NCBI GenBank assembly: GCA_028277445.1
Contig: JANQGG010000023.1
Location: 1-64,000, forward strand
Source: Chloroherpetonaceae bacterium
Lineage (GTDB): Bacteria > Bacteroidota > Chlorobiia > Chlorobiales > Chloroherpetonaceae
Reading direction: 5' to 3'
Length of the DNA stretch: 64,000 nt
The notes below the pieces were generated by a model that worked only from the letters and a program-made list of their open reading frames with translations, was not told the DNA's origin and ran no database searches. Below are positions 35,095-38,829 of this stretch, in pieces; the stretch's first letter is position 1; each line of letters begins with the position of its first letter. A program made the translations under genes and the position numbers.

Positions 35095-36234
35095 TTAAAG
35101 TTTTGGAAATCGCTTAGAAAGCAATTTAGCCGAATATTGAAAATTCAAACCTTGTTGTTGGCAAAGAATCTCAAGAAATTTATAAAAATTGGCTTGATCG
35201 TGTTGAGAAATCACAGCGTTTTCATGGGCTTCGGATAAACACATCGGATATCCTCCGCCTTTTTCAACATCGTCCAATATACAACTGTGAATGTAATCTA
35301 TTGTATGACTTGCATTATAAAAACACCAACCCGGCAATTCAACTCTTGCAATTTCTTTGCCGGTATGTAGATAAAAGAAAAATATCTTATCAGCCTCATC
35401 GTAATTTTCCATAACATCCGAATGGCTGACAAAAACTGACGAGCGTTCTTTTGGCTTTAAAAGTAATGAAAAAATATCACGATCATACAACCAGTTTTGG
35501 AGATTTATAGTTTCGAACCGATCCTTAACTAGTTTATTTAACGACTTTACAATTTCGCGTCCGCTTGGAAAACTGATGTAACTGAATATAGGAAGCGTTT
35601 CCAATCTAAATTTCTTTAATATCTCGGTGTAGGCAGTAAAGAGTCGCTCTTGAATCTGAGGATTTTGAATCTTTTTTAGATGCCAAAAAATCAGTGTGCC
35701 ATCAGATAGCGCTAAAACAGGCCGATTTGCAACCCGGTTGGTTTTAGCCAATGTGTAAAGTTGTTCAAGTTCTTTGAATTGCCGCAACGGACCAACCAGA
35801 TCGGAAAATTGCTCGTCATCAACATTTAAACCGCTTAAGAAAGGAAACATTGAAAGGTCGTCAAGGTCGAACAGGTAAGGTTGCTGCGAAATAACAGGCG
35901 GCTCAACCGTCCCGATTTGAAAACATATTTGACTGATATTGATGAGTGCGAAACTAAGATTAATGTTGCGATCCGGAAAGATTTGAGAGCCATCCGTTGA
36001 GCACAATGTGAACGGGTTTGGGCGAGGTTTAGGTGCAATTGAAGATGATGGATTTTCCAGAGGCAAAGCGCTCAAAGCTTTTTTGTCAAAAATTTTCCAG
36101 CGATCAAAGATATCCGGCGTTTTTTCTATACAAGTTTTTAAATCGTTTAGCAAGTTGGTTTGGGAGATGCGTTTTGAATTTAACCGACGTGCTAAATTTT
36201 TAAGTTCAGGTTCTAATTGAGATAAATGCAACAC
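35095..36234 (-). CDS. nurA: NurA-domain nuclease
   Basis: NurA is a 5'-3' exonuclease that acts with the HerA translocase in end resection. The 379-residue protein has the first metal-binding motif STDGSQIFPDRN (D81 by count), the family's LALSDGTLIFW (second acidic residue), a helical middle, SDVMENYD and the C-terminal conserved LPGWCFYNASHTIDYIHSCILDDVEKGGGYPMCLSEAHENAVIS. The start is GTG at 36234; no ATG lies nearby. It heads a minus-strand cluster with the TPR lipoprotein (23 bp downstream), the HAS-barrel gene and pyrD. herA is not in the window. Confidence 0.85.
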   Translation of the reverse strand: MLHLSQLEPELKNLARRLNSKRISQTNLLNDLKTCIEKTPDIFDRWKIFDKKALSALPLENPSSSIAPKPRPNPFTLCSTDGSQIFPDRNINLSFALINISQICFQIGTVEPPVISQQPYLFDLDDLSMFPFLSGLNVDDEQFSDLVGPLRQFKELEQLYTLAKTNRVANRPVLALSDGTLIFWHLKKIQNPQIQERLFTAYTEILKKFRLETLPIFSYISFPSGREIVKSLNKLVKDRFETINLQNWLYDRDIFSLLLKPKERSSVFVSHSDVMENYDEADKIFFFYLHTGKEIARVELPGWCFYNASHTIDYIHSCILDDVEKGGGYPMCLSEAHENAVISQHDQANFYKFLEILCQQQGLNFQYSAKLLSKRFPKL

Positions 36235-36354: not shown

Positions 36355-36382
36355 TTGAAAACAAATATACAAGATTTATATT
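36355..36382 (+). promoter_or_regulatory. Possible sigma-70-type promoter for the first structured RNA
   Basis: TTGAAA (36355-36360), a 16-bp spacer and TATATT (36377-36382) would start transcription at about 36389, some 20 nt before the first RNA stem. The second RNA copy has a TATAGAT box at about 36521 but a poor -35. Confidence 0.4.
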
Positions 36383-36399
36383 AATGTTAAATTTTGATA

Positions 36400-36488
36400 G
36401 ATAAGGCATCTCACGCCCGTGAGGTGTGACATGCGGTGTGGGGGACGCATGTCACGAAAGGCGACTCAAGTCGCCTTATCGTTTTTTT
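36400..36488 (+). ncRNA. Structured RNA resembling the Chlorobi-1 motif, copy 1
   Basis: Two stem-loops are followed by a terminator. Stem 1 is CAUCUCAC/GUGAGGUG around GCCC (36407-36426). Stem 2 is GUGACAUGCG/CGCAUGUCAC (36426-36455) with loop GUGUGGGGGA. The terminator is AAGGCGAC/GUCGCCUU (36458-36477), then AUCG and U7. This architecture (two hairpins plus a rho-independent terminator, in Chlorobi only) is that of the published Chlorobi-1 RNA motif; I match it from memory, not by a model search. Its function is unknown. It lies on the strand opposite both flanking genes, so it should be an independent transcript. Confidence 0.7.
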
Positions 36489-36535
36489 ACAAGTGGAATA
36501 AACACATTAAGTTTAATAAATATAGATTTTCGTAA

Positions 36536-36620
36536 CAATCATCTCACGCCCTGTGAGGTGTGGCAAGTGGATGGGGGACACTTGTCTGTTACATGAGGCG
36601 ACCTTGGTCGCCTTTTTTTT
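36536..36620 (+). ncRNA. Structured RNA resembling the Chlorobi-1 motif, copy 2
   Basis: It repeats the layout of copy 1. Stem 1 is AUCUCAC/GUGAGGU (36541-36559), nearly identical in sequence. Stem 2 is UGGCAAGUG/CACUUGUCU (36561-36587) with loop GAUGGGGGA. The terminator is AGGCGACC/GGUCGCCU (36596-36613) with U8. Stem 2 differs from copy 1 in several bases, but pairing is kept on both sides, while the loop core UGGGGGA is unchanged. This covariation supports a selected RNA rather than a recent duplication. Confidence 0.7.
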
Positions 36621-36639
36621 GCCCAAAATTATTGTAATC

Positions 36640-36677
36640 AAAAAAGCCATGTCAATAAATTGCGACATGGCTTTTTT
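36640..36677. terminator. Terminator downstream of glycogen phosphorylase
   Basis: Arms AAAAAAGCCATGTC (36640-36653) and GACATGGCTTTTTT (36664-36677) form a 14-bp perfect stem around a 10-nt loop. Reading on the minus strand it ends the phosphorylase transcript 23 bp after its stop; on the plus strand it backs up the second RNA terminator. Confidence 0.9.
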
Positions 36678-36699: not shown

Positions 36700-38829
36700 T
36701 TAAGCATCTTTATAATAATTCAAGCAGTAATCCTGAACCATACGATGGGTATTGTATTGATGAAGCAGGCTCATCAAAGAGGCTCTTACTTTTTGAATCC
36801 ATGCTTTTGGAATGTTGTTTTCATCGCGGTTATAATATGTAGGAACAACCTCGTTTTCCAAGGTTTCATATAAATTCAAAGCATCGAGCTTGGTTTGCTG
36901 TTCTTGATCGCTGATATTTTCGTCTTTACCAATTGCCCAACCATTTTCGCCATTATAGCCTTCGCGCCACCATCCGTCAAGAATGCTGAAATTTAAGCCG
37001 CAATTGGCAATGATTTTTTCGCCGGAAGTTCCGCTGGCTTCCAACGGACGAAGTGGATTGTTTAGCCAGACATCAACACCCGATATCAAATGACGGGCGA
37101 TATTGATGTCGTAGTTTTCAAGAAAGATAATTTTACCGAAGAACTGGGGCATTCTGGCAATTGAAATAATTTTTTGAATGAATTTTTTGCCGCCATTATC
37201 CCTGGGATGCGCTTTTCCGGAAAAAATAATTTGAACCGGGCGATCGGCATTGTTGATGATACCTGCAATGCGATCTATATCTGAAAAAATAAGCGGAGCA
37301 CGTTTATAGGTTGCAAAACGTCGCGCAAATCCTATGGTTAGGGCATCCGTTGATAAAATATCGAAATGCGGAATGGAGAGTTCCGAAGCAAACACGGACT
37401 TTTGGTTTTCAAGCTTGTGTCTGACATACTCTATTAAATCGCGCTTTAAGCGATATCGAAGCGACCAAAGTTCGGAATCCGAAATCTTATCGAGAGTCTC
37501 TTTCATTTTTTCAGGGTCGGTAATAAAATCAAGATCGAAATCGGTATAACGCGACCAGAACGTTTCGGTGCGATCGGTTATCCAACTTTTGACATGAATA
37601 CCGTTTGTGACATGCCCGATGGGAACTTCCTGCCCAGGATACAAATGAGTCCACATACCTCTGGCAATTTCACCGTTCAGTTCAGAAACGCCATTGGCTT
37701 TGCGCGACATATGTAGGCACAATACCGTCATGGTAAATAAATCATCGGCGTTGTCTTTATGCTCACGGCCTAAATTCATCAGATATTCAAATTTAAGATT
37801 GATGGATTTGGCATATTTTGCCAGCGAATAGTCCATGAGGTCTTCGGTAAATCGATCATGGCCGGCCGGTACCGGGGTGTGTGTGGTAAATACGCATTGC
37901 GATTTTACCGATTCAATACCTTTCTCCAATGACTTGCCTTGTTTGAGCTCCCTGGCTAGTAATTCCAAGGTTAAGAATGCCGAATGCCCTTCGTTCATGT
38001 GATAGACTTTCGGCACAATACCAAGCTTTTCTATCATTCTCGTTCCGCCAATGCCTAAAATGATTTCCTGGTTGATGCGAGTGGTTGAATCGCCGCCATA
38101 AACATGGCAGGTAATATCGCGATAATGCCCTTCGTTGGAATCTAAATTTGTATCTAATAAAATCAATCGCGCCCGGCCTACAGGAATTTCCCAAGCCACA
38201 ACATCGACCACACTATGACCGATTTCAACCGAAACCGTTACCGGGTTGCCCTGTTCATCTAAAATCGGATGCATCGGCATCTTTTCAGGATCATATAATG
38301 TATATTCTTCTTGTTGCCAGCCTTCATTGGAAATAAGCTGATTAAAATAGCCTTCACGGTAAAAGAGCGTAACGCCAATAAAATTTATACCAAGATCGCT
38401 TGCTGATTTTATATGATCGCCGGCAAGGATTCCCAAACCGCCTGAGTAAATGGGTAAGCATTCATGAAGACCAAATTCAGCGCTGAAATAAACGACCGGA
38501 TTGGGTTTAAATTCTGAGGCATGATTATCGGCCCAAGTGTTTTGATCGGATAAATATGTTTCAAAACCATGGAGAACGTCATTTACTTTGGACGCAAAAA
38601 CATTGTCGGATAATACAGCCGTTAGTTCATCTTTCGAAATGTTGTGCATGACCAGGATTGGATTGTGGTTATAACGCGACCACAACCTGGGCGAAAGTTC
38701 GGCAAAAATATTTTGAGCATGATGATTCCATGACCACCAAAGATTTTTTGATAATTTTTCTAAAAGACTGATCTGTTGGGGAATGGAATAAACAGGTATA
38801 TCAGTTTTTTCAATTGAGGTAATGGACAT
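36700..38829 (-). CDS. glgP: Alpha-glucan (glycogen) phosphorylase
   Basis: The enzyme releases glucose 1-phosphate from glycogen, the storage polymer of these autotrophs. The 709-residue protein belongs to the shorter alpha-glucan phosphorylase family. The N-terminus is 'LSKNLWWSWNHHAQNIFAELSPRLW', then VVYFSAEFGLHECLPIYSGGLGILAGDHIKSASDLGI, VYHMNEGHSAFLTLEL, FTTHTPVPAGHDRF and HVTNGIHVKSW. The pyridoxal-phosphate region is RPLEASGTSGEKIIANCGLNFSILDGWW. The usual GTSGMK is GTSGEK here, keeping the lysine. A single-gene transcript with its own terminator. Confidence 0.93.
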   Translation of the reverse strand: MSITSIEKTDIPVYSIPQQISLLEKLSKNLWWSWNHHAQNIFAELSPRLWSRYNHNPILVMHNISKDELTAVLSDNVFASKVNDVLHGFETYLSDQNTWADNHASEFKPNPVVYFSAEFGLHECLPIYSGGLGILAGDHIKSASDLGINFIGVTLFYREGYFNQLISNEGWQQEEYTLYDPEKMPMHPILDEQGNPVTVSVEIGHSVVDVVAWEIPVGRARLILLDTNLDSNEGHYRDITCHVYGGDSTTRINQEIILGIGGTRMIEKLGIVPKVYHMNEGHSAFLTLELLARELKQGKSLEKGIESVKSQCVFTTHTPVPAGHDRFTEDLMDYSLAKYAKSINLKFEYLMNLGREHKDNADDLFTMTVLCLHMSRKANGVSELNGEIARGMWTHLYPGQEVPIGHVTNGIHVKSWITDRTETFWSRYTDFDLDFITDPEKMKETLDKISDSELWSLRYRLKRDLIEYVRHKLENQKSVFASELSIPHFDILSTDALTIGFARRFATYKRAPLIFSDIDRIAGIINNADRPVQIIFSGKAHPRDNGGKKFIQKIISIARMPQFFGKIIFLENYDINIARHLISGVDVWLNNPLRPLEASGTSGEKIIANCGLNFSILDGWWREGYNGENGWAIGKDENISDQEQQTKLDALNLYETLENEVVPTYYNRDENNIPKAWIQKVRASLMSLLHQYNTHRMVQDYCLNYYKDA

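What the first reader, a model, noticed from the sequence alone, without database searches (positions are those of the whole stretch)
36355..36677. Two tandem Chlorobi-1-like RNAs with compensatory changes in the GGGGGA hairpin
Two structured units 136 bp apart share the same plan: hairpin CTCAC/GTGAG, a second hairpin with loop UGGGGGA, and a rho-independent terminator. Stem 2 is GUGACAUGCG/CGCAUGUCAC in copy 1 and UGGCAAGUG/CACUUGUCU in copy 2, so both arms changed together while the loop stayed constant. Each unit has its own terminator, so each is probably a separate small RNA. The layout fits the published Chlorobi-1 motif, whose function is unknown. The exposed G5 loop could bind C-rich targets such as pyrimidine-rich mRNA starts or a CsrA-like protein (speculation).
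Basis: partly seen in the sequence, partly recalled or inferred. Interest (0 to 1): 0.72.

Follow-up and report, generated by a model that had tools for sequence, protein, structure and literature searches.

The report
Divergent twin Chlorobi-1 small RNAs
Two neighbouring small-RNA genes in a relative of green sulfur bacteria are distant members of an RNA family of unknown function, and comparing about 100 copies from relatives gives the family a missing third helix, a switchable promoter and a testable link to cell-surface sugar genes.

Summary
Both units score on Rfam Chlorobi-1 (42.0 and 36.0 bits, E 7e-10 and 7e-8), but below the curated cut-off of 50. Copy 1 is the syntenic counterpart of a copy that passes (52.9 bits), divergent from nurA in both genomes, so these are divergent relatives, not look-alikes. 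Covariation across 85 copies is overwhelming. All 12 sampled genomes of the non-Chlorobiaceae families in the class carry the RNA, mostly as tandem pairs; no sampled genome outside the class does. (2) In Chlorobiaceae, 57 copies lie behind a sigma-54 promoter, with TGAGAC enhancer-like sites upstream. The same layout precedes polysaccharide-export operons, and one orphan NtrC-type activator is present almost exactly where these RNAs are. The window copies lack all of this. (3) The CsrA idea fails: CsrA and Hfq are absent from 18 of 18 genomes. Most likely a trans-acting small RNA acting through its invariant UGGGGGA loop. Targets are unproven; an 8-base target search found no enrichment.

The parts
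36403..36487 (+). RNA copy 1 (class A: two hairpins then terminator; Rfam match 36403-36466)
   Evidence: Chlorobi-1 42.0 bits, E 6.9e-10; fold z -5.9; syntenic with G087 copy at 52.9 bits
36406..36427 (+). copy 1 hairpin 1, 9 pairs, loop GCCC
   Evidence: fold; covariation
36428..36453 (+). copy 1 hairpin 2 with loop GUGUGGGGGA
   Evidence: fold; covariation
36439..36445 (+). copy 1 invariant apical loop core UGGGGGA
   Evidence: four G columns invariant and the flanking T, G, A, C at 90% or more in 85 homologues
36458..36487 (+). copy 1 intrinsic terminator (8-pair stem 36458-36477, then ATCGTTTTTTT)
   Evidence: terminator scan
36532..36620 (+). RNA copy 2 (class B: outer helix P1 + two hairpins + terminator; Rfam match 36536-36603)
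   Evidence: Chlorobi-1 36.0 bits, E 7.4e-8; fold z -4.3
36532..36537 (+). copy 2 outer helix P1, 5' arm GUAACA
   Evidence: fold; P1 test p 0.01; P1 covariation
36540..36560 (+). copy 2 hairpin 1, 8 pairs, loop GCCCU
   Evidence: fold; covariation
36562..36586 (+). copy 2 hairpin 2, 8 pairs, loop GAUGGGGGA (UGGGGGA at 36572-36578)
   Evidence: fold; covariation
36587..36592 (+). copy 2 outer helix P1, 3' arm UGUUAC
36595..36620 (+). copy 2 intrinsic terminator (stem 36595-36614, then T tail)
   Evidence: terminator scan
36355..36382 (+). possible promoter of copy 1 (TTGAAA-16-TATATT); weak, not a sigma-54 site
   Evidence: 10 of 12 consensus matches; not significant against shuffles (p 0.155)
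35095..36234 (-). nurA-like gene divergent from copy 1; conserved neighbour in G087, G095 and G097
   Evidence: Pfam NurA E 7.7e-23; synteny
36700..38829 (-). alpha-glucan phosphorylase gene convergent with copy 2
   Evidence: Pfam DUF3417 and Phosphorylase

Best explanation
The two units are a tandem pair of genes for trans-acting small RNAs: divergent, deep-branching relatives of Chlorobi-1. Each folds into two side-by-side hairpins followed by its own terminator; copy 2 and most deep-branching copies are closed by an outer helix into a three-way junction. The working part is inferred to be the apical loop UGGGGGA, which stays invariant while the stems change freely; most likely it contacts C-rich RNA (mRNA leaders or starts) by loop pairing. 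In Chlorobiaceae the RNA is switched on by RNA polymerase with sigma-54 and, probably, an NtrC-type activator bound at TGAGAC sites, alongside polysaccharide-export genes, so there it probably carries a post-transcriptional part of a cell-surface programme. In the window's organism the same RNA is driven from a non-sigma-54 promoter. Shown computationally: homology, structure, covariation, terminators, sigma-54 sites, enhancer-like sites, co-occurrence with the activator. Inferred: transcription, trans action, loop function, partners, activator binding, the surface programme.
For: Rfam match of both copies. 17 of 18 pairs change on both sides, 230 cells, 0 of 500 shuffles, 92.6% paired versus 33-48% when slid. 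No hits outside the class in 395 phylum genomes, and all 12 non-Chlorobiaceae genomes of the class are positive. Positional conservation next to nurA in f1 and f4. Genes on both sides in the window lie on the opposite strand, so it is not a 5' leader. Loop G's invariant. Sigma-54 score >=10 of 12 in 57 of 97 copies against about 0.25% of shuffles, with the -12 element most often exactly 12 bases before the RNA start. In G025 three of the genome's four perfect sites are these RNA promoters. TGAGAC in 33 of 55 upstream regions against 6 expected, typically 100-180 bases upstream. TGAGAC plus sigma-54 before SLBB polysaccharide-export genes in three genomes. Activator and sigma-54 RNA co-occur: 33 both, 48 neither, 5 discordant.
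Against: No transcript data. Window promoters are weak. The loop complement GTCCCCCA occurs 18 times in the genome, 3 of them the RNAs themselves, against 30 for the reversed control, and only 1 of 15 sits at a gene start in sense: no sign of selected targets. The activator co-occurrence is clustered on the tree: about 3 of 4 supported independent contrasts agree and almost none oppose, but that cannot reach significance. The window's organism lacks the activator and the sigma-54 sites, so the surface link does not carry over directly. No Hfq, which some but not all base-pairing RNAs need.
Confidence: 0.55

Rival explanations
1. Protein-binding RNA: the compact fold presents the UGGGGGA loop to an RNA-binding protein (an RRM-type protein is the obvious candidate), titrating or guiding it, with copy number setting the dose.
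For: RRM proteins in 13 of 13 genomes; up to five copies per genome; some g3 arrays put two modules in one presumptive transcript; invariant loop and junction AA/U rather than a long seed; no target enrichment; B. thetaiotaomicron RbpB binds a paralogous sRNA family (PMC11697453).
Against: RRM proteins are also present where the RNA is absent (G001, G016, G028), so co-occurrence is uninformative; RbpB prefers single-stranded regions (PMC11697453); no binding data.
Confidence: 0.3
2. CsrA sponge through the GGA in the loop.
For: GGA lies in an apical loop in nearly every copy.
Against: CsrA absent from 18 of 18 genomes of the class including this one, while the control genomes known to have it ring.
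Confidence: 0.02
3. Cis-regulatory leader or attenuator rather than a separate small RNA.
For: A terminator directly follows the structured domain.
Against: Nearest genes on both sides in the window lie on the opposite strand; in Chlorobiaceae the next gene (malate dehydrogenase) also lies on the opposite strand; many copies have their own promoter and terminator.
Confidence: 0.05
4. A mobile or repetitive DNA palindrome element (REP or MITE-like) rather than a functional RNA.
For: Tandem copies and several copies per genome.
Against: Fixed strand relative to promoter and terminator, promoter-to-RNA spacing, invariant loop with covarying stems, few copies, conserved synteny across families.
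Confidence: 0.03

Closest known systems
Chlorobi-1 RNA (RF01696; Weinberg et al. 2010, PMC2864571)
   Same: Two hairpins, GCC loop 1, UGGGGGA loop 2, terminator, class restriction; syntenic orthologue of window copy 1 passes the cut-off.
   Different: Both window copies are under the gathering score; copy 2 and most deep-branching copies have an outer P1 helix that the Rfam model lacks; non-sigma-54 promoter.
Qrr small RNAs of Vibrio (works-like comparison only)
   Same: Multiple paralogous copies of one small RNA (PMC8043402) driven by sigma-54 and an NtrC-type activator (sigma-54 point from general knowledge), as proposed for Chlorobiaceae.
   Different: No sequence relation claimed; Qrr RNAs use Hfq (general knowledge), absent here; the window copies have no sigma-54 promoter.
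FopS/GibS small RNAs of Bacteroides thetaiotaomicron (PMC11697453; works-like only)
   Same: Multi-copy small RNA family in the same phylum, associated with an RRM protein, acting on surface-glycan genes.
   Different: Seed in a single-stranded 5' end, not in a hairpin loop; driven by the housekeeping sigma factor; no homology claimed.

Membership tests
Chlorobi-1 (RF01696) | Rfam gathering score of 50 bits | tested here: not met
   42.0 and 36.0 bits; third copy 39.5. A curated score cut-off, not a biological feature; I therefore describe them as divergent sub-threshold relatives.
Chlorobi-1 (RF01696) | significant match over the full 67-position model | tested here: met
   positions 1-67, E 6.9e-10 and 7.4e-8
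Chlorobi-1 (RF01696) | two hairpins with GCC and UGGGGGA loops, supported by covariation | tested here: met
Chlorobi-1 (RF01696) | intrinsic terminator directly downstream | tested here: met
Chlorobi-1 (RF01696) | confined to Chlorobi | tested here: met
   own genome and all hits fall in one class; no hit elsewhere in the sampled phylum
Chlorobi-1 (RF01696) | orthology to an accepted member | tested here: met
   same place divergent from nurA as the G087 copy at 52.9 bits
Chlorobi-1 (RF01696) | expressed as an independent RNA | not testable with these tools
   no expression data available
CsrB/RsmY-type CsrA sponges | CsrA present in the genome | tested here: not met
   0 of 18
Sigma-54-driven small RNAs (as the Chlorobiaceae members) | -24/-12 promoter upstream | tested here: not met
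   window copies score 6 of 12, the shuffle level; Chlorobiaceae copies meet it
PEP-CTERM/PrsR sigma-54 regulon | PrsR equivalog | tested here: not met
   0 of 98 over the cut-off

The most novel reading that the evidence does not exclude
Chlorobi-1 is the small-RNA arm of a sigma-54 enhancer-controlled cell-surface polysaccharide programme in Chlorobiaceae, wired in by a promoter swap from an older housekeeping-promoter RNA that folds as a three-way junction and is still present, as tandem pairs, in the deep-branching families such as the window's.
Probability: 0.4. Interest if true: 0.7.

Novelty: new variant of a known kind. Interest (0 to 1): 0.5.

Why it matters
Chlorobi-1 was listed in 2010 with no function, and in the held library that is the only paper naming it. 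Here it gains a wider membership, a missing third helix, a predicted start and promoter class in Chlorobiaceae, a candidate activator and a candidate regulon, which turns an orphan RNA into a directly testable circuit. It also offers a clear case of one RNA family moving between housekeeping and sigma-54 control. The genome whose size matches Chlorobaculum tepidum TLS (size from memory) has neither RNA nor activator, so work in that strain would miss it.

Tried and rejected
CsrA sponge: no CsrA. Hfq-dependent RNA: no Hfq. PrsR/PEP-CTERM regulon: no PrsR equivalog. Seed-target search GTCCCCCA in the own genome: no enrichment. Genome-wide and viral DNA pattern scans were too loose and returned chance hits across bacteria, useful only for naming two contigs. 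Complement of the loop in the polysaccharide-export loci: no convincing site. Loop-loop pairing of loop 1 CC(C) with loop 2 GGG was considered; it is not kept in one Chlorobiaceae lineage where loop 1 becomes GNAA, so it is left as an idea only. Six weak class hits (E 1e-4 to 1e-7, some inside coding sequence) were left out of the alignment.

Full report
WHAT IS THERE. The + strand between nurA (35095-36234, - strand) and an alpha-glucan phosphorylase gene (36700-38829, - strand) holds two structured units. Each has a hairpin with a GCC loop, a hairpin with a UGGGGGA loop and an intrinsic terminator. Both fold better than every shuffle. cmscan finds Chlorobi-1 (RF01696) over the whole model at 42.0 and 36.0 bits (E 6.9e-10 and 7.4e-8), under the gathering score of 50, which is why a default Rfam scan of the window reports nothing. 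A third copy lies elsewhere in the same genome (C22:33460-33526, 39.5 bits).

MEMBERSHIP. In the class, 45 of 98 genomes match at E <= 0.001, 37 above the cut-off. Two named contigs place family f2 in Chlorobiaceae (contig lengths of L131 and L154 equal those of G038:C56 and G033:C55). The nearest relative, G087 (3,293,456 bp, the size of Chloroherpeton thalassium from memory), has a copy at 52.9 bits in the same place, divergent from nurA and followed by the same thioredoxin-like and further genes; G095 and G097 of family f4 share that order. Window copy 1 is therefore the syntenic counterpart of an accepted member. A model built from 85 copies finds no hit outside the class among 395 phylum genomes, but hits in every one of 12 genomes of families f1, f3 and f4, mostly as close pairs. 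The tandem arrangement is thus probably old. The window copies were among the training sequences of that model, so their scores with it are not independent evidence; the Rfam scores are.

COVARIATION. On a structure-blind alignment of 85 distinct copies, 17 of 18 pairs change on both sides, 230 cells show double changes (shuffled mean 72), and no shuffle of 500 reaches the observed covariation; sliding the partner by one to three bases drops pairing from 92.6% to 33-48%. The loop G's are invariant.

A MISSING HELIX. Folding the deep-branching copies reveals an outer helix that closes both hairpins into a three-way junction. Window copy 2 has GUAACA/UGUUAC, the third own copy GCAGAA/UUCUGC, G087 copy 2 ACAGAGAGUAAC/GUUACUCUCUGU, G089 UGCAGA/UCUGCA, G091-G094 GCAAC/GUUGC and GCAGU/ACUGC, G096-G097 GUGGC/GCCAC. 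Against shuffled flanks, 12 of 22 non-Chlorobiaceae copies reach p <= 0.05 (about one expected), versus 1 of 53 in Chlorobiaceae genus g4. All arm pairs are fully complementary although they come in nine different sequences; dealing arms among copies gives a mean of 32 and at most 61 inner pairs, observed 75 of 75. Four of the five fixed-register P1 pairs change on both sides (some copies are offset by one base, so its 72.6% paired is an underestimate). The arms were chosen by eye and by longest-helix search, so the shuffle test, which repeats that search on shuffled flanks, is the fairer control. Copies in the nurA position (window copy 1, G087 copy 1, G095, G097, and G096:C38) lack the helix, so there are two structural classes.

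PROMOTERS. Upstream of 57 of 97 copies, all in Chlorobiaceae, lies a near-perfect -24/-12 site (TGGCAC..TTGC; score >= 10 of 12 against 0.25% of shuffles), in most g4 copies with the -12 element exactly 12 bases before the RNA start and in g3 about 22. RpoN is present in 93 of 98 genomes. In G025, 3 of the 4 perfect sites of the genome are these promoters. Further upstream, TGAGAC/GTCTCA occurs in 33 of 55 regions against 6 expected. The window copies, G087 and families f3 and f4 have no such site; several show housekeeping-type boxes instead (TANNTTTG or TATAAT), convincing in G087, moderate elsewhere and not significant for the two window copies.

REGULON AND ACTIVATOR. Other sigma-54 sites with TGAGAC upstream precede polysaccharide-export (SLBB) genes in G025, G030 and G053, an acyltransferase-like gene and a glycosyltransferase-like gene; nifH has a sigma-54 site without TGAGAC. 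An orphan response regulator with sigma-54 activation and Fis-type domains occurs with the sigma-54 RNAs: 33 genomes have both, 48 neither, 4 activator only, 1 RNA only (Fisher 3e-18), and the two genomes whose RNA lacks sigma-54 sites (G022, G058) lack it. That probability is inflated by relatedness: on an RpoN tree each trait needs 8 changes, and of 4 supported independent contrasts about 3 agree and almost none oppose, too few for significance. The activator was picked out because it looked over-represented in RNA-bearing genomes, so the test is not fully independent of its choice. Binding of this activator to TGAGAC is a proposal, not a result.

FUNCTION. Neighbouring genes lie on the opposite strand in the window, so a leader role is unlikely. 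CsrA and Hfq are absent from 18 of 18 genomes; RRM proteins are universal. The 8-base loop complement shows no enrichment at gene starts in the own genome. I favour a trans-acting small RNA with the loop as contact site, RNA pairing somewhat more likely than protein binding.

LITERATURE. In the held library only Weinberg et al. 2010 (PMC2864571) names Chlorobi-1, once, as a likely RNA in Chlorobi that is not cis-regulatory. Its supplement could not be read, so I cannot exclude that promoters were noted there.

Noticed in passing
L035:4994-5100 (G000:C22:33460-33526): Third Chlorobi-1-like copy in the same genome, with outer helix GCAGAA/UUCUGC, a TATAAT box 13 bases upstream and its own terminator.
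   Followed up: yes
36400-36407 and 36473-36480: In copy 1 the leader GATAAGGC is perfectly complementary to GCCTTATC in the terminator's 3' arm, a possible anti-terminator; no equivalent was seen by eye in G087 copy 1.
   Followed up: partly
window 36645-36677: Near-perfect hairpin (AAAAAAGCCATGTC...GACATGGCTTTTTT) that would terminate transcription in both directions between copy 2 and the phosphorylase gene.
   Followed up: no
L077, L081, L083 (G010, G014, G017 arrays): In genus g3, some first copies sit inside an outer stem (GGTCTGCA...CTGCAGGCC) and a second copy lies close downstream without a sigma-54 site of its own: possibly two modules per transcript.
   Followed up: partly
L048, L051, L087 (G029:C61, G039:C39, G022:C5): Chlorobiaceae copies with loop GCAA lying directly after a coding gene without a sigma-54 site, possibly 3'-UTR-derived RNAs.
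   Followed up: no
G000 whole genome: The loop complement GTCCCCCA is rarer (18 sites, 3 of them in the RNAs) than its reversed control (30 sites); possible avoidance, not tested further.
   Followed up: partly
L329:3165-5430 (G025): The orphan sigma-54 activator that tracks the RNA sits next to a gene resembling a chlorosome envelope protein (resemblance from memory; Pfam gives only LPD38) and a dUTPase-like gene.
   Followed up: partly
G020 (contig of 2,154,946 bp): A genome of the size of Chlorobaculum tepidum TLS (size from memory) has neither the RNA nor the activator, so model-strain studies would not see this RNA.
   Followed up: no
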